DNA of 64,000 nucleotides from Enterobacter ludwigii (GTDB lineage Bacteria; Pseudomonadota; Gammaproteobacteria; Enterobacterales; Enterobacteriaceae): the NCBI RefSeq assembly GCF_001750725.1, contig NZ_CP017279.1, positions 1,798,001 through 1,862,000 of the forward strand, read 5' to 3'. Below, piece after piece: positions 21,691-30,003 of this stretch. How positions within the stretch are numbered: the stretch's first letter is position 1; every line of letters starts with the position of its first letter. Made by a program: the position numbers and the translations under genes. The notes under the pieces were generated by a model that saw nothing but the letters and a program-made list of their open reading frames with translations, did not search any database and was not told the origin of the DNA.

Positions 21691-22896
21691 TTACGGAACA
21701 ATAATATAATCAGGGTTAGCAACAGAAAACATTTTCTCTCTGTCGGGTTCTGGCGGATAAATCCACTGAGTATTAATTTCCTGCTTTATTTTTTTCGCTT
21801 CAATGCCCTGGTACATAACCTGATGATCCCAGCCTTCCGTGTAGACCGCCCCCCATTTGCCCAGATCAAGACAGGTAACATATTTTGGCTGGCTGTAAGA
21901 ATGCAGCGGTAATCCCAGTATTTCTGCTGCCGCGTTATGACCGGCGACGCGCCCCAGGCTCATCGCATGCTGGCAGGACATGACGTTATAATTACCTTCA
22001 TCATCCGTAGGGACTTTTACGGTATCGCCGGTAACGAAGATACCCCTGGCGCCAGGTGCCCGCAGATACGCATCCCCTATAACACGGCCCAGACTATCGT
22101 GGTCGCCCGGGATGAGCCCGGCTAACGCGCTGGCCCGCATTCCCGCCGTCCATATCACCGTTTTGCTGGGGATAAATTCATCGTCCGAGAGCATCACCCC
22201 CTCAGCGTTGATTGCGCGCACTCTGACGCCCGTTCGTACAGTCACGCCATTACTGGCGAGCGCCTGATTGATGATCTCACAGGCATCCTCGCCCATCGCC
22301 TGACCAATTTTGTTCGAACTGTCCACAATAATAACCTGCAAATGGCGCTCCGAACCCAAGAGGTCTCTGAGGCGTTCCGGCATTTCAGTGGCGGTCTCAA
22401 GCCCGGTCAGGCCCCCACCGGCGACAACAACAGTATTTCGTGCGGGAGAATCAGGCTCTGAAGCTAACGACATGAGGTGTTGCTCCAGTTCATGAGCAGC
22501 ATTCAATGAGTTCACGTCAAAACTGTATTCCGTGATCCCCGGCAGTTCAGGGTGAAATGCCTGGCTTCCGGTGGCCAGCACAAAACTGTCAAAATTAACT
22601 GAGGTTTCGCCACTCTCTTTTTTTACCGAGATAGTTTTATTTTCTGCATCAATACCGGTGACATAACCGGCAATATAGTGCACACCCGCAGCCTCAAGAA
22701 CATGCAGAATAGAGGGTGCCATATTTTCAAGCACGGCTTCATACAATCTTGGACGAATGGTTAATGCAGGTTCCGGTGAAACCAAAAAAATCTCAATCCG
22801 ATCATTTGCCTTTTCCATTTGTACCAGCCTTGCTGCTGAAATGGCGGCCCACATACCTGCAAAACCCGAACCGGCAATAATAATACGTTTTTTCAT
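21691..22896 (-). CDS. NAD(P)/FAD-dependent oxidoreductase, NDH-2-like
   Basis: A 401-residue flavoprotein with two Rossmann motifs: IIIAGSGFAGMWAA at the N-terminus for FAD and VVVAGGGLTGLETATE near residue 160-175 for NAD(P)H. The second FAD block GIFVTGDT is present, then CQHAMSLGRVAGHN, where type II NADH dehydrogenases carry the quinone-site AQxAxQ motif; here Gln is kept but the motif is altered. No clear C-terminal membrane helix is seen. It would transfer electrons from NAD(P)H to a quinone or similar acceptor. It is unlinked to any respiratory operon here; role open. Confidence 0.85.
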   Translation of the reverse strand: MKKRIIIAGSGFAGMWAAISAARLVQMEKANDRIEIFLVSPEPALTIRPRLYEAVLENMAPSILHVLEAAGVHYIAGYVTGIDAENKTISVKKESGETSVNFDSFVLATGSQAFHPELPGITEYSFDVNSLNAAHELEQHLMSLASEPDSPARNTVVVAGGGLTGLETATEMPERLRDLLGSERHLQVIIVDSSNKIGQAMGEDACEIINQALASNGVTVRTGVRVRAINAEGVMLSDDEFIPSKTVIWTAGMRASALAGLIPGDHDSLGRVIGDAYLRAPGARGIFVTGDTVKVPTDDEGNYNVMSCQHAMSLGRVAGHNAAAEILGLPLHSYSQPKYVTCLDLGKWGAVYTEGWDHQVMYQGIEAKKIKQEINTQWIYPPEPDREKMFSVANPDYIIVP

Positions 22897-23033
22897 AGCG
22901 ATACCTGTTAACAGCGGATGATGAAAATGTCGTTACCGCACCAAGAGTAGTGAAAGTCAAACCTGCCTGCTCTAGCAAAATTGATGTGCTTTAATCAAAT
23001 TTGATGTTTTTTTTATCAGCGCTGCACGCGCCG

Positions 23034-23786
23034 CTAAATTTGCCCCATCCCGCCATCGACAGACAGGTCGATACCCGAAATAAAACTGCTTTCATCCGAT
23101 GCAAGAAACAGCACCGCCGCAGCCACCTCGTCGGGTTTACCTAAGCGACCTAACGGAATACGACTTGCGATGCTGGCGTCAAAAATCTCGCGATCGCTCA
23201 GGGAAACGCCCATTTTACTGATAATCGGTGTGGCGACGGGTCCTGGGCTAAGACAATTCACGCGGATCCCACGGCCTTTAAGGTCGGTCGTCCAGCTGCG
23301 GGCAAAAGATCGCAGCGCGGCTTTTGAGGCGGCATAGATAGTGTGGCCATCGAACCCTTTATAATGCGCAATGGAGGACGTTAATATTATCGAGCCACCG
23401 TCGGACATTAACGGGAGGGCCTGTTGCACGGCGAAAAACGTCCCTTTTACGTTGATATCAAACTGGGTATTAAAATCATCTTCGGAGGAAGCCGGAAAAT
23501 CGGAAAGCACAATAACGCCGGCATTTGCAAACATCACATCCAGCTTGCCGTACTTTTCGTTAATAATGCGAAAGAGGTTTTCATGACTTCGTATGTCACT
23601 ATTATCGTGTTGTATTGACAGTGCATTATCGTCACCGAGTTCATTCATCGCCTGCTGCAGGGTTTCTGCATTCCTGCCAGTGATAATCACCTTTGCGCCT
23701 TCTTCAATAAACCGTTTGGCCGTGGCCAGCCCGATACCGCTACTGCCACCGGTAATTAACGCGACTTTATTGTCTAACTGTTTCAT
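23034..23786 (-). CDS. SDR-family oxidoreductase (MerR-linked)
   Basis: A 250-residue classical SDR: TGGSSGIG at residues 12-19, NAG, and catalytic Tyr151 and Lys155 in TIYAASKAA. ITGRNAE after strand 2 (Arg) suggests NADPH. The ending FISGIDLSVDGGMGQI is typical. It lies 37 bp after the MerR gene on the same strand and is probably co-transcribed from the palindromic promoter at 24203-24224. Such MerR-SDR pairs respond to carbonyl compounds in some bacteria; here the substrate is not known. Confidence 0.9.
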   Translation of the reverse strand: MKQLDNKVALITGGSSGIGLATAKRFIEEGAKVIITGRNAETLQQAMNELGDDNALSIQHDNSDIRSHENLFRIINEKYGKLDVMFANAGVIVLSDFPASSEDDFNTQFDINVKGTFFAVQQALPLMSDGGSIILTSSIAHYKGFDGHTIYAASKAALRSFARSWTTDLKGRGIRVNCLSPGPVATPIISKMGVSLSDREIFDASIASRIPLGRLGKPDEVAAAVLFLASDESSFISGIDLSVDGGMGQI

Positions 23787-23823
23787 GATGATGTTTCCTG
23801 TTATTACTGCTCAGACAGAGCGA

Positions 23824-24171
23824 TCACTCGTAGGCGTGAATACGCGTGGCAAGTGTATTTCTGCGTTCATTAAGTAATTCGATAAGCGTGTCCAGTGCCC
23901 GAAGTTTTTCTCTGTGCTGCGCCAGACACTGGATAAAACGCGCATCATCCATGTCACTTACCTGAGAAAACTTTTCCAGCTCTGCAATCTGTCGGGTACT
24001 GAACCCACATTTTAAAAGCGAGGTTATCCATCTCACTTTCTCGACGTCTTTTGCGTCGTAATTCCGATAACCGTTGTCCAACCGCTGAGAAACAATCAGT
24101 CCTTTAGCTTCATAATGTCTTAGCACTCGGGTGCTGACGCCAGTGAGCGCCGCCAGTTCAGATGGTCGCAT
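23824..24171 (-). CDS. MerR-family transcriptional regulator
   Basis: A 115-residue regulator. The N-terminal MerR HTH is clear (MRPSELAALTGVSTRVLRHYEAKGLI, NGYRNYDAKDVEKVRWI), followed by the dimerising coiled coil (residues 75-110). It lacks the cysteines of metal-sensing members, so it probably senses an organic or redox signal. GAGGAGAAAGG precedes the ATG. A perfect 22-bp palindrome lies 32 bp upstream, fitting autoregulation of a merR-SDR operon by DNA distortion. Confidence 0.92.
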   Translation of the reverse strand: MRPSELAALTGVSTRVLRHYEAKGLIVSQRLDNGYRNYDAKDVEKVRWITSLLKCGFSTRQIAELEKFSQVSDMDDARFIQCLAQHREKLRALDTLIELLNERRNTLATRIHAYE

Positions 24172-24202
24172 ACCTTTCTCCTCGTCATAGATGCACTCTA
24201 CA

Positions 24203-24224
24203 ACATTGACACTAGTGTCAATGT
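24203..24224. promoter_or_regulatory. Perfect 22-bp palindrome, MerR-type operator
   Basis: ACATTGACACT followed directly by its exact reverse complement. It contains a TTGACA -35-like hexamer on each strand, the expected position for a MerR site in an over-long spacer. The -10 on the minus strand is not obvious. Confidence 0.75.
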
Positions 24225-24270
24225 AAAGAGCATAGCGCTAGCTGGAATGTAAGCAGATATTTCATGAGAC

Positions 24271-24320
24271 AGGCAAAATTAACTCCGCCAACGGAGATTG
24301 CAGCAATCTTGATTTTGCCT
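24271..24320 (+). other. Nested inverted repeats upstream of the mig-14-like gene
   Basis: AGGCAAAAT (24271-24279) pairs with ATTTTGCCT (24312-24320). Inside lie two smaller hairpins: CTCCG-CCAA-CGGAG (24283-24296) and ATTGC-A-GCAAT (24297-24307). The set could fold as a three-way junction in RNA. A further hairpin GGCGC-N5-GCGCC follows at 24376-24390. Regulatory leader or small RNA are both possible; neither is proven. Confidence 0.45.
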
Positions 24321-24419
24321 TGACCGTTTATTGATTAACAGTCGGGATAATCAGCCTGTTCAGACAGAACTGCCCGGCGCTGACAGCGCCCTCTGATGAG
24401 ATTGCAAGGAGAAACAATA

Positions 24420-25310
24420 ATGGGCTTCAGACATTCGCTTTTTGGATGGGAACGTTCAAACTTCACGCATTACCAGGCGGCTTATTATAAGTACGGCGGC
24501 AGTGTTAATACTCACCCCGACATTATCAATTTCTTTATGCAGAAGAAGGAAAAAGATTTCGCATTCTGGCATTACCGACGCGATGGCGAGGTCTCCGCAG
24601 CGTACTTTACCAGTGATGAAAATACCTTCGGCCTGAATGTCTGGCGCGATTACCCGGTATCTTATGATGAAATTATTATCCCCATGGCTGCCGATCAAAA
24701 AATCGTTCTGCCAGTAAAAACAAACCGGCTGTCTTCATCGCTGCGTGGGAATATAATAAATGCCACCTATGCTTTTCGTGAAAAACGTAAGGTTTGCCTG
24801 ATTAAAACGTCTTTCTCAGGTAAAACGGTGAAAAAAAGAAACGGCGAGCTAAAAAAAATGCTGGCTGCGGGCGGAGAATGCATACCGCTCAGAGAGATGT
24901 CACCGGCGGATATTGCTGATATTTACGTGCATCTTTTCAGGCTGCGTTTTGCTGACAGCGTCAGATGCTATAACAGGAAAAACATCACTGAACTGTTAAC
25001 CGCCCTGCCACATATGGTCACCGGCAATGTACTTTTCTTTGAAGGTGCCCCCGTTGCGATAGATCTCGTACTGTGTGCCCGTAGTGAAAAAAGCCTGTAT
25101 TTTGATGTTCCTAACGGAGGGATTGACCCGTCGATCACCGCATTCAGCCCAGGAAGTCTGCTCATGTGGAAAAATATTGTTGATGCACGAGAAGTGTGTC
25201 GCAATGAAAATAAGGCAATGCAATTTTCAATCGGATTGTATGATAAAAAATGGGACTATAAACTGCTTTGGGCCGAAACCCAGCCCACAGGTAAATCACT
25301 GGTTCTTTGA
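24420..25310 (+). CDS. Mig-14 family protein
   Basis: A 296-residue protein similar by eye to Salmonella Mig-14, an inner-membrane-associated factor for resistance to cationic antimicrobial peptides. Shared blocks are YPVSYDEIIIPM, PVKTNRLSS, the AREK-type basic stretch before KKRNGELKKM, YFDVPNGGIDP, FSPGSLLMW and the C-terminal SIGLYDKKWDYKLLW. It belongs to a GNAT-like/Mig-14 fold group. AAGGAG at 24406-24411 supports ATG 24420. In Salmonella the gene is PhoP-dependent; here it is convergent with a two-component system, so that system could control it (inference). Codon use is AT-richer than the flanks, fitting transfer. Confidence 0.87.
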   Translation: MGFRHSLFGWERSNFTHYQAAYYKYGGSVNTHPDIINFFMQKKEKDFAFWHYRRDGEVSAAYFTSDENTFGLNVWRDYPVSYDEIIIPMAADQKIVLPVKTNRLSSSLRGNIINATYAFREKRKVCLIKTSFSGKTVKKRNGELKKMLAAGGECIPLREMSPADIADIYVHLFRLRFADSVRCYNRKNITELLTALPHMVTGNVLFFEGAPVAIDLVLCARSEKSLYFDVPNGGIDPSITAFSPGSLLMWKNIVDAREVCRNENKAMQFSIGLYDKKWDYKLLWAETQPTGKSLVL

Positions 25311-25338
25311 ACTGTATTCGCCGCCCTGCCCTCAACAA

Positions 25339-25485
25339 TTATTTATCTCCTTTCGGCGCATCCAGTAAAACAATAATGATAACCTGAAATATGACAATCA
25401 CCGGTGCGATGTACAGTAAAAAACATCCACATCGTACCATTTTACGAAAGGCAGAAAGCAGAGAGAGAAGTAATTCAGGTGACAT
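25339..25485 (-). CDS. Small single-pass membrane protein after the histidine kinase gene
   Basis: A 48-residue frame not overlapping any other gene. It begins MSPELLLSLLSAF, has a basic patch (Arg14, Lys15, Arg18), then a strong membrane segment at about residues 20-41 and a short charged tail DAPKGDK, so N-in/C-out is predicted. The stop is TAA. A run of G bases lies 8-12 nt before the ATG. The gene starts 73 bp after the kinase stop on the same strand, so it can be part of the two-component operon. I do not recognise the family. Position and topology recall small kinase modulators such as MgrB, but there is no sequence likeness to MgrB. Confidence 0.55.
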   Translation of the reverse strand: MSPELLLSLLSAFRKMVRCGCFLLYIAPVIVIFQVIIIVLLDAPKGDK

Positions 25486-25506
25486 GGTAAACCCCCGTTT
25501 ACCATG
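25483..25506 (-). promoter_or_regulatory. Hairpin holding the start site of the 48-residue protein
   Basis: On the minus strand CATGGTAAAC, GGGG, GTTTACCATG: a perfect 10-bp stem whose loop is the Shine-Dalgarno and whose last three bases are the start codon. There is no T-tract after it, so it is not a simple terminator. Translation control, or a DNA-level operator, are possible. Confidence 0.6.
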
Positions 25507-25557
25507 TATTTAAACTCAATTTTTACAAGATTCAGTTCACCCTTTGTTAAGGAACCG

Positions 25558-26760
25558 TCAATGCTGTTCCTTTTCGCTTAGCGGTATCGTCATCGTGAAC
25601 GATAGCCCTCCGCTGGCATTCCGTTCTGCAGAGATAGTACCGCGATGCGCCTCGCATATCGCTCGGGCAATAGAGAGCCCAAGCCCGGACCCACCGGTAT
25701 GTCGTGAACGGGACTGCTCCTCACGCACAAACGGTGAAAATATGGTTTCAAGCAGTGCGTCCGGGACTGCCGGACCGTTGTCGCGGAAAATAACGGATAC
25801 CTTTTTATCGCTGACATGATAACGAATATCCAGGATGCCCCCTTCCGCAGCGTAGCGCAGAGCATTGTCCATCAGGATCAAAAAGACCTGGCCTATCCGG
25901 TACGGATCAACCCGACAGGTCACAGATTCCCCCTCATGGTAGATAATGTTCACTCCCACCCTTTGGGCTGAAGGCATCGTCCATGCCACTTTCTCACGGA
26001 TTATCTGGTCCAGGCTGGTTGATACCAGGCTCAAATTCAGCTGGTTGGCATCAGCCAGTTTTAACAGATGCAGATCGTCAACCAGTCTGTTTAAATCATT
26101 CATCTGCTGCATAATCATGTTCAACTGGGCCTGACTGGGTTCAAATACGCCGTCCATAATGCCCTGCAGACGACCGATGGCAGCCGTCAGCGGCGAGCGC
26201 AATTCATGTGCCATGATCACATGCGATTTTTTCAAATCTTTCTCGTAGCGTTCCAGCTGCATCGACATCCCGTTAAAGTTCTCGCTGAGGCTACGCAATT
26301 CAAGCGGCAGATTGTCCGGGACGGGCACACGGGTCCCAAACCCGCCTTCAGCAACAGACCGTGCCGCACCGGCAAGCCGGCTAATATGATGGGAAATGGG
26401 TCGCGCTGTTTTCAGCGTAAGCATAAAAATAATCGGTATGAATATCAGAACCAGGATGCCAAGAATGACCCAGTCCTTAATCCCCATCGTCGGATCTGAG
26501 TAGGACAGCCCATACCAGGTGTCGATAATTTCATGATAGCGGTTGATGTTCTGTTCAGGGTGCTTGCTCAGAACTGAGAGTTCAGCCCTGACGGCCTCTG
26601 GCATCCGGTAGGCGTGCCATTTGTTTTCAACAAAAAATCGCACCCACATAAAAAAGGCAATAAGAATAATACTTCCGACAGCCAGGGATATCAGCCGCTT
26701 GCATATCCAGTTCCACAGCGTACTCGGTTCGCCTCGTGGAGATAACGTAAACTTTTTCAT
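25558..26760 (-). CDS. Sensor histidine kinase (BaeS/AdeS-like)
   Basis: A 400-residue kinase. Two membrane helices (about 23-42 and 97-118) frame a short periplasmic domain of some 55 residues. A HAMP domain (118-172) and the H-box VIMAHELRSPLTAA with phospho-accepting His185 follow; the N-box DNALRYA and G-boxes DNGPAVPD and GGSGLGLSIA are intact. The short sensor domain resembles AdeS and BaeS more than PhoQ. Its start overlaps the response regulator stop (ATGA), so the two are coupled. The signal is unknown; envelope stress is inferred from the mig-14 and mipA neighbours. Confidence 0.93.
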   Translation of the reverse strand: MKKFTLSPRGEPSTLWNWICKRLISLAVGSIILIAFFMWVRFFVENKWHAYRMPEAVRAELSVLSKHPEQNINRYHEIIDTWYGLSYSDPTMGIKDWVILGILVLIFIPIIFMLTLKTARPISHHISRLAGAARSVAEGGFGTRVPVPDNLPLELRSLSENFNGMSMQLERYEKDLKKSHVIMAHELRSPLTAAIGRLQGIMDGVFEPSQAQLNMIMQQMNDLNRLVDDLHLLKLADANQLNLSLVSTSLDQIIREKVAWTMPSAQRVGVNIIYHEGESVTCRVDPYRIGQVFLILMDNALRYAAEGGILDIRYHVSDKKVSVIFRDNGPAVPDALLETIFSPFVREEQSRSRHTGGSGLGLSIARAICEAHRGTISAERNASGGLSFTMTIPLSEKEQH

Positions 26761-27443
26761 GCATTTGCAAATCGGTAACCGATCCCTCTAACGTTTATCA
26801 GCAAATCAGTCTGCCCCGCTGACTCGAGTTTTTTTCGCAAGTTATAGATATGCGTGTCCACAACGCGCTCCAGGGCTTCACTTTCTGGGAGACACGCTTC
26901 AAGAAGCGCCTGACGGGTGAAAGCCTTATTCGGTGACTTAAGAAATGTCATCAGCAGCAGCAGTTCCGTCGGCGTTAAATCCAGCGCTGTCCGTTGCCCG
27001 TTCTCGCTCTCAACGCTTACCGTCATGGACTCTGTATCTGCCTGCAGTCCCCGGTACTCAATAAGCGTGCTGCTGCGCTCGCCGGAATAACGACGGAGTA
27101 CAGCATGGACTCTGGCGACCACCTCACCCGGGTTATAGGGCTTCACCACATAGTCATCCGCGCCAAATCGCAGGGCGCTGATTTTGTCGCTGCCGTCGCG
27201 GATGGCGGTGATCATAATCACGGGAATATCACTGCGCCGGCGCAGGGCCAGCAGAACATCGTTCCCGCTCATGCCGGGCAACATCACATCCAGCAAAATA
27301 ATGTCGGGCTTCCAGCTGAATGCCAGTTCGAGCCCCCGGTTACCGCTGCTGGCCGAAGAGGTCTGAAACTGATCGCGCTTAAGGTAAGCCTCAAGCACAT
27401 TCGCGGCATCCAAATCGTCTTCAATAATTAAAACACGTTTCAC
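26757..27443 (-). CDS. OmpR-family response regulator
   Basis: A 228-residue regulator: receiver domain with acidic pair Glu8-Asp9, phospho-acceptor Asp52 (IILLDVMLPG) and Lys in VVKPYNPGEV, followed by an OmpR-type winged helix (about 130-226; LDLTPTELLLLMTFLKSPNKAFTRQALLEA). It pairs with the kinase gene that overlaps it. Its upstream region holds four phased direct repeats, a likely autoregulatory binding site shared with mipA. Confidence 0.95.
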   Translation of the reverse strand: MKRVLIIEDDLDAANVLEAYLKRDQFQTSSASSGNRGLELAFSWKPDIILLDVMLPGMSGNDVLLALRRRSDIPVIMITAIRDGSDKISALRFGADDYVVKPYNPGEVVARVHAVLRRYSGERSSTLIEYRGLQADTESMTVSVESENGQRTALDLTPTELLLLMTFLKSPNKAFTRQALLEACLPESEALERVVDTHIYNLRKKLESAGQTDLLINVRGIGYRFANA

Positions 27444-27448
27444 ATTCG

Positions 27449-27490
27449 CACCTTGATGGAATCTTGATTAAATCTTGCAGGAATATTGAT
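27449..27490. promoter_or_regulatory. Four 9-bp direct repeats with exact 11-bp period
   Basis: CACCTTGAT (27449), AATCTTGAT (27460), AATCTTGCA (27471) and AATATTGAT (27482), all with TTG in the same register, spaced 11, 11 and 11 bp. OmpR-family regulators bind such phased direct repeats as tandem dimers. The array spans the gap between the response regulator gene and mipA-like gene and could control both. Confidence 0.75.
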
Positions 27491-27548
27491 TGACCGCCCG
27501 CATACTCCGCAATTCATAGATATAAGCATAATTCATTCAGGAAGTTTT

Positions 27549-28325
27549 ATGAAGGAAATAAAAATCGCCTTAGTAACACTCATCGCTGCATCGTTCGCTT
27601 CACAGGCATCATCAGATAAAAAAGCATCTTATGTCACGATTGGCGTGGGTTCACAATATGCGCCTGAATATACCGGCTCGAATAAATATGATGTCAATAC
27701 GCTGCCGTATTTCGGATGGACTTACGATGACTGGTCCGTCAATACCGACAAAGGTATCGTCTATTCCCATCAGTTCAGTAATGGCGTTTACCTGGGGCAA
27801 GCTCTGGGGTATTCCCTTGGCCGCACGGATAGCGGAAACGCCTGGCTTCAGGAAGGCTCTGATAAACTTAAAGGTATGGGTAAGATTAATACCGTAATGA
27901 ATACCACCACCACGGCAGGATGGTGGATGGCACCCTGGATAGGCTTTGAGGGAAATATTACGGCACCGCTGACTGAAAGCCAGGGAATGCAATATAAAAT
28001 TAAACTTAATGTCGTTCTTTTTGCTAACGATACAGATACTCTGCTAATCAGTACCGAAAGAAAATACGGCGACGCACGGTATAATAATACCTGGTTTGGG
28101 GTGAGTGAAAATCAAAGTACCCATTCCGGATATAGGCCTTTCAACGCGGGTAGCGGATTAAACAGTGTGAATTACGATATTAACTGGCAACACACATTTA
28201 ATGATAACTGGTCCGGCTATGCAGATTTAGGGTATATCACGCTTGCAGACCGTGTAAGCAACAGCCCCATTGTGCAAAAGGATGAATATCTTCTCTTTAC
28301 CGTCGGGGCATTTTATACATTCTGA
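27549..28325 (+). CDS. MipA/OmpV-family outer-membrane protein
   Basis: A 258-residue protein with a signal peptide (about residues 1-22, ending ASQASS) and alternating beta-strand pattern to a terminal aromatic (FTVGAFYTF), which is the outer-membrane insertion signal. GVGSQYAPEYTGSNKYDVNTLPYFG is typical of MipA/OmpV. I use ATG 27549, preceded by CAGGAAG. It is divergent from the response regulator with the four direct repeats between. MipA homologues have been linked to murein synthase complexes and to antibiotic entry; which applies here is unknown. Confidence 0.9.
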   Translation: MKEIKIALVTLIAASFASQASSDKKASYVTIGVGSQYAPEYTGSNKYDVNTLPYFGWTYDDWSVNTDKGIVYSHQFSNGVYLGQALGYSLGRTDSGNAWLQEGSDKLKGMGKINTVMNTTTTAGWWMAPWIGFEGNITAPLTESQGMQYKIKLNVVLFANDTDTLLISTERKYGDARYNNTWFGVSENQSTHSGYRPFNAGSGLNSVNYDINWQHTFNDNWSGYADLGYITLADRVSNSPIVQKDEYLLFTVGAFYTF

Positions 28326-28371
28326 TGCAGGATATCGGTTATCTGGTGCTCTGACCGCCAGATAACCTGGT

Positions 28372-29262
28372 TTACTGCGTTTTAAGCTTATTAATAAACC
28401 AGCGTCCGGCTGGCCCTGGAGGATATTGCGTCATATGTACCGCATGCATGGAAAAACCAGGGCCAACATCGGGCTGTATCTCCAGGTTCAGGATAACCAG
28501 TCTGCCATTAGCAAGATCGTCCTCAACCATAGGCAAAGGCATATAACCCCAACCGAGGCCCGCACGCAAGAATGCATGTTTTGCCCCCATGTCACCCAAA
28601 CGCCACGTCTTAGCCGACATCACACCAAAGTTGCGACCCGCCGTGAGTGATGAGCGGTCAGCCAATACAAGCTGCACAGCGTTCTCCATAACCGGCCGAA
28701 GAATTGGGCCAGCCATTTTAGCCAAAGGATGATCGGGTGAGACCACAGCCACGGCAGGAACACTGAGCAGGAACTCAGAGGCACACCCGGTCGGAACATC
28801 CGGTAGCGAGCCGATAATCGCGACCCGACAGTTGCCGGCCAGCAACGGCTGAAGTACCGCCCCCAGCGCCTCAACATAAAGACGCAACGGTGTGCCGGGA
28901 AAGGCCAGATGAAATTCCTTCACGACTGCGGTCAGGACCTCTATCGGAAACATCACATCCACAGACACGGCGAGTTCGGGTTCCAGGCCTTCTGCCAGGA
29001 TACGCGCCTTAGCCTTAAATGCGTCCATTCCGGCAAGCGTATGGCGTGCGGCCTCCAGTAAGGCTGCCCCCGCCTCCGTCAGTTTCGGGTAACGTCCCGT
29101 TCGCTCAAATAAAGGAAAACCTACCTGAGATTCCAGATTTGCCAGCGTAGCGCTAACGACGGACTGCGCCCGGCGAAGTTTGCGACCTGCGGCCGAGAAA
29201 CTGCCTTCATCAACCGCAGCAATGAAAGTACGCAGTTGATCAATCGACATACCATCCAGCAT
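28372..29262 (-). CDS. LysR-family transcriptional regulator
   Basis: A 296-residue LysR protein: HTH in FIAAVDEGSFSAAGRKLRRAQSVVSATLANLE (about 12-45) and an effector domain after it. AAGGGG lies 7 nt before ATG 29262. It is divergent from an NADP-binding reductase gene, with a 19-bp dyad at 29274-29292 close to its own start. The effector domain carries no cysteine pair of the OxyR type. Confidence 0.92.
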   Translation of the reverse strand: MLDGMSIDQLRTFIAAVDEGSFSAAGRKLRRAQSVVSATLANLESQVGFPLFERTGRYPKLTEAGAALLEAARHTLAGMDAFKAKARILAEGLEPELAVSVDVMFPIEVLTAVVKEFHLAFPGTPLRLYVEALGAVLQPLLAGNCRVAIIGSLPDVPTGCASEFLLSVPAVAVVSPDHPLAKMAGPILRPVMENAVQLVLADRSSLTAGRNFGVMSAKTWRLGDMGAKHAFLRAGLGWGYMPLPMVEDDLANGRLVILNLEIQPDVGPGFSMHAVHMTQYPPGPAGRWFINKLKTQ

Positions 29263-29273
29263 GTATCGCCCCT

Positions 29274-29292
29274 TTAGATGTATACCATCTAA
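29274..29292. promoter_or_regulatory. LysR-type dyad
   Basis: TTAGATG and CATCTAA separated by TATAC, containing the T-N11-A pattern. It lies just upstream of the LysR start and 105 bp before the reductase start. Confidence 0.6.
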
Positions 29293-29397
29293 TTATATAG
29301 GCTACACAGATAGATCGGTGAGCACTATTCTCCTTTCATGTTCTTAAGCAACGTCGCCAAACACATCAACGCATCTGTTCATTTAAGGAAACAAACT

Positions 29398-30003
29398 ATG
29401 AAAACAAATACTGTCGGCATTATTGGTGCAGGCGCCATCGGACAAGCCTTTGCCCACCAGCTGGTCAACGCAGGCGTGAATGTCATCCTCAGTAACAGTC
29501 GTGGCCCGGACAGCCTGGCTGAAGTGATTGAGGCATTGGGCGACAAAGCTCGCGCCGGAACGGTACAACAGGCTGCCGAAGCCGAAATCGTTTTTATAAG
29601 TACCAACTGGAACAGAACCGAGGCCGCATTAAGTGGGTTGAACTGGGAGGGTCGTATTCTGATTGACGCGACTAACCCGGTACTTTTGCCGGGCTACACC
29701 CTTGTAGATCTGGGGGGTAAAAATTCATCCCAGCGCGTTTCAGAATGGGCAGCGGGAGCCCGAGTCGTCAAAGCCTTCAACACGCTTCTGGCAAACGTTC
29801 TTGCGCAAGATCCGTCCCAATCTGGCGGGCGCCGCGTGGTCTTTATGTCCGGCGACCACGCTGATGCAAAAGCGGACGTTGAGGAATTAGCCACCCGAAT
29901 GGGCTTCGCCAGTATAGACTTAGGGAGTCTTGAGATTGGGGGATATCTGCAACAATTCCCGGGTGGTCCCCTTCCCGCGCTAAACCTTGTGAAACTGGCT
30001 TAA
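29398..30003 (+). CDS. NADP-binding reductase, F420-reductase-like fold
   Basis: A 201-residue Rossmann protein: GIIGAGAIGQAF at residues 7-18, SNSRGPDSL after strand 2 as the NADP phosphate site, and VVKAFNTL and GGRRVVFMSGD as further blocks of the NADPH:F420 oxidoreductase-like family. Enterobacteria make no F420, so it probably acts on another acceptor. TAAGGA before ATG 29398 fixes the start. It is divergent from the LysR gene that likely controls it, and 18 bp before an AraC gene. Confidence 0.87.
   Translation: MKTNTVGIIGAGAIGQAFAHQLVNAGVNVILSNSRGPDSLAEVIEALGDKARAGTVQQAAEAEIVFISTNWNRTEAALSGLNWEGRILIDATNPVLLPGYTLVDLGGKNSSQRVSEWAAGARVVKAFNTLLANVLAQDPSQSGGRRVVFMSGDHADAKADVEELATRMGFASIDLGSLEIGGYLQQFPGGPLPALNLVKLA

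What the first reader, a model, noticed from the sequence alone, without database searches (positions are those of the whole stretch)
25339..25506. 48-residue membrane protein after a histidine kinase, with start codon and Shine-Dalgarno in a perfect hairpin
A frame of 48 codons lies in the gap between the kinase and mig-14-like genes: N-terminal basic patch, one strong membrane helix, charged tail. Its Shine-Dalgarno is the 4-nt loop, and its ATG ends the 3' arm, of a 10-bp perfect stem. This suggests translation control by RNA folding (temperature, ions or a protein). Small membrane proteins that tune a neighbouring kinase are known (MgrB with PhoQ), but this one shares no sequence with MgrB.
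Basis: partly seen in the sequence, partly recalled or inferred. Interest (0 to 1): 0.72.

Follow-up and report, generated by a model that had tools for sequence, protein, structure and literature searches.

The report
Read-through lock after efflux sensor kinase
An RNA hairpin that hides the start of a tiny membrane-protein gene looks like one case of a recurring switch in enterobacteria, predicted to block translation of the gene after an efflux-type sensor kinase unless that gene's own promoter has been switched on.

Summary
In detail: a 48-codon frame (25339-25485, minus) starts in the 3' arm of a perfect 10-bp stem with a G-rich Shine-Dalgarno loop. Comparison changes its meaning. Hairpin and frame persist in three further lineages. 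In 31 of 36 relatives lacking mig-14 beside the kinase, the next gene is an RND-pump adaptor, often behind a similar hairpin. Both kinds share regulator-like boxes, a -10 and a hairpin whose 5' arm lies mostly upstream of the predicted transcription start. Over 37 non-redundant junctions, exposing the ribosome site costs 13.0 kcal/mol in read-through RNA, 3.5 in the predicted short RNA and 7.2 in shuffles; 26 of 37 are significant, against 0 of 73 control starts. Best reading: a read-through lock, as in phage T4 lysozyme. RNA running on from the kinase gene is untranslatable; RNA from the regulator's inner promoter lacks the 5' arm and is translated. The small protein sits where the adaptor's membrane leader sits and probably derives from it. 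An MgrB-like role has no sequence support. Transcription starts, regulator binding and expression are not shown.

The parts
25339..25485 (-). small membrane protein ORF, 48 codons plus stop
   Evidence: relatives
25482..25492 (-). 3' arm of the hairpin, holds the ATG (25483-25485)
25493..25496 (-). GGGG loop, most of the Shine-Dalgarno
25497..25507 (-). 5' arm of the hairpin (anti-ribosome-site arm)
25499..25501 (-). predicted transcription start (6-8 nt after the -10), inside the 5' arm; not measured
   Evidence: inference; sensitivity
25508..25513 (-). predicted -10, TTAAAT
25524..25529 (-). regulator-like box 3, CTTGTA, 16 nt before the -10
25546..25562 (-). regulator-like boxes 1 and 2 (one mismatch to the motif), overlapping the kinase stop codon
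25558..26760 (-). sensor histidine kinase, nearest model AdeS (below cut-off)
26757..27443 (-). response regulator, nearest model AdeR (below cut-off)
24420..25310 (+). Mig-14 family gene, convergent (start by its ribosome site; the ORF listing gives 24396)
24308..24335 (+). exact regulator-like boxes before mig-14
27452..27468 (+). exact regulator-like boxes before mipA
27549..28325 (+). MipA/OmpV family gene, divergent from the regulator (probable ATG; the ORF listing gives a TTG at 27486)

Best explanation
The hairpin is a read-through lock. RNA that runs on from the regulator-kinase genes carries both arms, folds the ribosome site and start codon into a stem and is not translated. When the regulator is active it fires an inner promoter after the kinase gene; that RNA starts inside or after the 5' arm, cannot fold the stem and is translated. 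The lock ties the gene after the kinase to the active regulator: an RND adaptor in most loci, the small membrane protein in the mig-14 clade. The small ORF most likely descends from the adaptor's signal-anchor leader and was kept as a short membrane protein. Shown by computation: recurring hairpin, its excess over shuffles, co-varying arms, shared layout, synteny, and its restriction to this junction. Inferred: the transcription start, read-through, regulator binding to the boxes, translation, and the origin of the small ORF.
For: Shared layout of boxes, -10 and start in small-ORF and adaptor loci. Ribosome-site opening energy 13.0 (read-through), 3.5 (short), 7.2 (shuffles) kcal/mol; 26 of 37 at p<=0.05, Stouffer z 14.4; 35 of 37 lose at least 2 kcal/mol in the short RNA. 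0 of 73 other gene starts in these loci significant. Two adaptor genes now away from the kinase operon show no excess: L015 4.7, z -0.63; L007 8.5, z 0.65. Fixed-register pairing 77% over 31 loci; permuted arms 69% (1 of 5000 as high); slid registers 26-51%. 325 of 402 paired bases pair upstream of the predicted start. Helix centres of the small ORFs 30, 31, 31, 33; adaptor leaders median 30.5, range 17-36, n 30. Kinase tree: small-ORF loci plus L030 form one clade, 100/100.
Against: No transcription start was measured; if it lies 0-4 nt after the -10 the window RNA keeps 9-14 kcal/mol in the short form. 11 of 37 junctions are not significant alone (L036, L040, L042, L047, L050, L052, L058, L082, L084, L090, L100), and L042, L052, L084, L100 show no excess. 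Nine more diverged loci (L091-L099) gave no promoter/start pick and were not tested. Junctions are related, so the summed z overstates independence. The 16-nt rule and the pairing register were set after seeing the data. The box before the small ORF has one mismatch; at that tolerance the window holds 7 matches against 4.2 expected. L030, sister of L031, has a palindrome without Shine-Dalgarno, boxes or ORF. L037 and L049 carry a terminator-like repeat after the kinase, which would lower read-through.
Confidence: 0.68

Rival explanations
1. The hairpin is in the induced RNA too and is a riboregulator (temperature, ion, protein or small RNA opens it) controlling a small membrane protein that tunes the kinase, as MgrB does PhoQ.
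For: Start codon and Shine-Dalgarno in a strong stem; small membrane ORF beside a kinase; if transcription starts 0-4 nt after the -10 the stem persists.
Against: Stem stays shut up to 60 C in the model; the hairpin precedes adaptors as well; no MgrB match; in adaptor loci the 5' arm overlaps the -10.
Confidence: 0.12
2. The palindrome is a DNA operator for a dimeric repressor or activator overlapping promoter and start codon.
For: Perfect dyad in the window, near the promoter.
Against: Arm sequences differ wholly between lineages while staying complementary; the distance between arms runs from 4 nt to about 17 nt, unlike a fixed operator; one-sided G-U changes occur.
Confidence: 0.06
3. The small ORF is a decaying relic of the adaptor's 5' end, and its lock is left over; the protein does nothing.
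For: Same slot, promoter layout and helix position as adaptor leaders; charges not conserved; L007 vs L016 differ by 2 nonsynonymous and 0 synonymous changes in 50 codons; ORF missing in L030.
Against: Open frame and helix kept in four lineages, each with chance 0.0013-0.014 in shuffled DNA; second codon position most conserved in 9 of 10 comparisons, tied in one.
Confidence: 0.35
4. The small protein is a pump partner, as AcrZ is of AcrB, or acts with Mig-14.
For: Pump and mig-14 genes are neighbours in L007 and L015.
Against: No Pfam match to AcrZ, no PDB sequence match; no pump gene found by tblastn in window 22001-30000.
Confidence: 0.12

Closest known systems
Phage T4 lysozyme gene e (with soc, 49, I-TevI) inhibitory leader hairpin
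   Same: Long transcripts fold a hairpin over the ribosome site; transcripts from promoters just upstream lack its 5' portion and are well translated (PMC3014915, passages seen).
   Different: Here the inner promoter is predicted to answer to a two-component regulator, not a late sigma factor, and the locked gene is a pump adaptor or small membrane protein. Not shown by experiment here.
IS10/IS50 protection of transposase from outside read-through (recalled, no call)
   Same: A hairpin present only in read-through RNA hides the ribosome site.
   Different: Those are transposons; this is a regulatory operon.
AdeRS-AdeABC type efflux regulation
   Same: Regulator and kinase score best or near best against AdeR and AdeS, below cut-off; neighbours in relatives are RND pump genes.
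   Different: Here the adaptor follows the kinase on the same strand in most relatives; the divergent adeRS/adeABC order is recalled, no call.
MgrB and other small membrane regulators (recalled)
   Same: Short single-helix protein beside a kinase.
   Different: No sequence match; probable origin from an adaptor leader.

Membership tests
T4 gene e-type read-through lock | Hairpin sequesters Shine-Dalgarno and/or start codon in the long RNA | tested here: met
   Predicted folding: 26 of 37 junctions p<=0.05; window p 0.015
T4 gene e-type read-through lock | Inner promoter whose RNA lacks the 5' arm | tested here: inconclusive
   Predicted from a recurring -10; 35 of 37 lose at least 2 kcal/mol; start not mapped, result depends on the offset
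T4 gene e-type read-through lock | Long RNA made but not translated, short RNA translated | not testable with these tools
   no expression data
MgrB family | Sequence similarity to MgrB | tested here: not met
   Window protein: no MgrB model in Pfam or NCBIfam at E<=1, nor in Pfam at E<=5 for window, L015, L016, L031
MgrB family | Binds and inhibits the kinase | not testable with these tools
   needs experiment
RND adaptor leader derivative | Same slot, promoter layout and hairpin as the adaptor start | tested here: met
RND adaptor leader derivative | Helix at the same distance from the start codon | tested here: met
   30, 31, 31, 33 against adaptor median 30.5, range 17-36, n 30
RND adaptor leader derivative | Lipobox cysteine | tested here: not met
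   0 of 4 small ORFs; 26 of 30 adaptor leaders
RND adaptor leader derivative | Sequence homology to adaptor leaders | not tested
   Leaders are short and variable; no profile comparison was run
CydS-like (PF22282) | Score above the Pfam cut-off | tested here: not met
   17.2 bits, cut-off 25
AcrZ | Sequence similarity | tested here: not met
   No Pfam match; no PDB match for the window protein at E<=10

The most novel reading that the evidence does not exclude
A family of two-component efflux operons in enterobacteria carries a promoter-embedded anti-ribosome arm: the DNA between regulator box, -10 and start site doubles as the 5' strand of an RNA lock, so that pump or small-protein synthesis ignores read-through and depends strictly on the active regulator; in the mig-14 clade the locked adaptor start has become a new free-standing small membrane protein.
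Probability: 0.5. Interest if true: 0.75.

Novelty: new variant of a known kind. Interest (0 to 1): 0.62.

Why it matters
It would show a phage-style guard against read-through serving as a safety catch of regulated drug-efflux operons, with significant hairpins in 26 of 37 non-redundant junctions whose stem sequences differ. It gives a simple test (same gene, two RNAs, only one translated), explains why promoter and leader there are constrained together, and offers a candidate small membrane protein born from a truncated adaptor gene.

Tried and rejected
Close relatives of the window's own allele: 0 of 59 other genomes, 35 of them same genus. In 392 family genomes (own included) the protein search gave four further weak hits, E 0.0018-0.0077, two with a stop inside, treated as noise; the hairpin pattern gave one further genome at zero mismatches (G226, ORF as in L007) and four at three mismatches, not followed. 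Viral contigs: 0. Window protein in plasmids: no match. L016 small-gene region in E. coli genomes: no match.

An architecture scan of the fetched loci (membrane ORF of 30-75 aa, Shine-Dalgarno in the loop, stem of at least 9) found the small ORFs and also hits in L013, L026, L037, L064, L066, L076 and L077 that I judged unrelated frames; a genome-wide background was not possible.

Terminator: none found at 25200-25700. Rfam: no match there. Temperature sensor: not favoured by the energies. DNA operator: see rivals. Type I toxin: considered from recalled Fst/Ldr features; no Pfam match, and the conserved synteny speaks against it; no antisense RNA was sought.

Rows dropped: of 68 loci, six were left out by hand (L030, L034, L035, L038, L046, L060), nine gave no pick (L091-L099), 53 were picked and 37 kept after removing near-copies. 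47 of the 53 met the box-16 nt-(-10) rule, which I set after reading the junctions; in six (L047, L051, L082, L090, L101, L105; three among the 37) the -10 was placed 34 nt before the start. The L031 start was set by hand. L089, L090 and L100 were left out of the leader counts; that L100 is an adaptor was not checked. One mipA control (window) was placed 3 nt off.

Papers: PMC3014915 and PMC8450116 seen as passages; the latter showed no read-through protection. Searches for this mechanism or locus gave listings only (two were empty), in which I saw nothing on a lock in efflux or two-component operons; the library holds open-licence papers only.

Full report
OBSERVATION. The minus strand of 25339-25485 encodes 48 aa from an ATG that closes the 3' arm of a perfect stem, 11 bp counting the outer A-U, with a GGGG loop. 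The gene lies downstream of, and on the same strand as, a response regulator (26757-27443) and a histidine kinase (25558-26760), and converges with a Mig-14 family gene. The best NCBIfam models for the pair are AdeR and AdeS, both below cut-off. The stretch is rare: 0 of 59 other genomes hold it, 35 of them of the same genus.

RELATIVES WITH THE SMALL ORF. Klebsiella plasmids (L015, L016) and Citrobacter gillenii (L007) have the same order: mipA, regulator, kinase, small ORF, convergent mig-14. The hairpin is nearly identical there while the ORF has diverged to 26-29% amino-acid identity with the window; L007 and L016 are near-copies of each other. Fifteen plasmid records match the L015 or L016 small-gene region and none has an annotated gene under the match, though that gene table is incomplete. 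A kinase tree puts these loci and L030 in one clade with 100/100 support; L030, sister of L031, has no small ORF.

THE SLOT USUALLY HOLDS A PUMP ADAPTOR. Among 36 relatives without mig-14 beside the kinase, tblastn finds an RND periplasmic adaptor after the kinase in 31. Reading the kinase-to-next-gene junctions suggests one layout: CTTGAY-like boxes in 11-bp phase, a -10 hexamer 16 nt after the start of the last box, then a start codon 28-29 nt (small ORF) or 32-36 nt (adaptor) after the start of the -10. I turned the 16-nt spacing into a rule after seeing it; 47 of 53 picked loci meet it. Helix centres of the small ORFs (30, 31, 31, 33) coincide with those of adaptor leaders (median 30.5, range 17-36, n 30); adaptors have a lipobox cysteine in 26 of 30, the small ORFs in 0 of 4. 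So the small ORF occupies the place of the adaptor's signal-anchor leader. Descent from it is the simplest reading, not proven; no sequence homology test was run, and the tree root is only a midpoint.

THE HAIRPIN IS A FEATURE OF THIS JUNCTION. For 37 non-redundant junctions I computed the energy needed to expose positions -12 to +3 around the start codon. RNA with 60 nt upstream: mean 13.0 kcal/mol. RNA beginning at the predicted start, 7 nt after the -10: 3.5. Shuffles of the upstream part: 7.2. 26 of 37 are significant at 0.05 and 35 of 37 lose at least 2 kcal/mol in the short RNA; 11 are not significant alone and four (L042, L052, L084, L100) show no excess. The same test on 73 starts of mipA (16), regulator (17), kinase (17), RND (15), mig-14/outer-membrane channel/relocated adaptor (7) and SMR (1) gives 0 significant. 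The two relocated adaptors (L007, L015), no longer downstream of the kinase, show no excess, as a read-through lock predicts.

RNA RATHER THAN DNA. At a fixed register, in which the last two bases of the -10 pair with the AU of the start codon, 77% of positions pair over 31 loci; permuting the 3' arms among loci gives 69% (1 of 5000 as high) and sliding gives 26-51%. The register was chosen after looking at the data. The arms change together: ATGGCGCA/TGCGCCAT (L062), ATAACGCC/GGCGTTAT (L036), ATGATGAT/ATCATCAT (L040). Others use a helix reaching further upstream: AGCCGGGTTC/GAACCCGGCT (L064), ACCCGGTT/AACCGGGT (L037), ACACGGTT/AACCGTGT (L049).

MECHANISM. 325 of 402 paired bases in the ribosome-site windows have their partner upstream of the predicted start, so RNA from the inner promoter could not form the lock. 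This is the logic reported for T4 gene e, where longer early RNAs form the inhibitory structure and late-promoter RNAs lack its 5' portion (PMC3014915, passages). The conclusion hangs on the start site: with 5 nt or more after the -10 the window RNA is open (5.3 kcal/mol or less); with 0-4 nt it is still shut, 9-14 kcal/mol. Boxes also precede mig-14 and mipA: three exact motif matches in the window against 0.16 expected, all in this locus. The box pair before the small ORF has one mismatch, a tolerance at which the window holds 7 matches against 4.2 expected, so it rests on position and on the relatives.

IS THE SMALL PROTEIN REAL? For: open frame and helix in four lineages, each with chance 0.0013-0.014 in shuffled DNA, and the second codon position most conserved in 9 of 10 comparisons, tied in the tenth. 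Against: charges not conserved; L007 and L016 differ by 2 nonsynonymous and 0 synonymous changes in 50 codons, while their kinases show 18 and 39 in 395; L030 lacks the ORF. I put a functional protein at about 0.6. The MgrB idea has no sequence support.

LIMITS. Nothing here is measured in cells. The protein database could not be queried, and a genome-wide background of such hairpins was not possible. Loci are related, so the combined statistic overstates independence; the contrast with controls from the same loci stands.

Noticed in passing
L030:2685-2710: Perfect 11-bp palindrome GCATGATGACC-ACAA-GGTCATCATGC between kinase and convergent mig-14, without Shine-Dalgarno, boxes or ORF; relic or unrelated, unresolved.
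   Followed up: partly
L007, L015, L016, upstream of the small ORF: An in-frame ATG eight codons upstream, at the 5' arm (MHGKREYT- or MHGKRRFT-), gives a longer frame; the window lacks it.
   Followed up: no
window 24308-24335 and 27452-27468: Exact 11-bp phased regulator-like boxes before mig-14 and mipA suggest one regulon.
   Followed up: partly
plasmid collection: Mig-14 relatives occur in 771 plasmid records, 654 of them Escherichia; those opened from Salmonella and E. coli lie in other gene settings.
   Followed up: no
L044, L049: Frames in the adaptor slot of 60 and 83 codons that keep a significant start hairpin; no adaptor match was found there.
   Followed up: no
L077:3985-4170: A Salmonella plasmid Mig-14 gene also has a convergent small hypothetical protein downstream; the scan flagged no hairpin at that gene, only an unrelated hit elsewhere in L077.
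   Followed up: partly
L035, L060: An SMR transporter follows the kinase here, with no box-16 nt-(-10) match.
   Followed up: no
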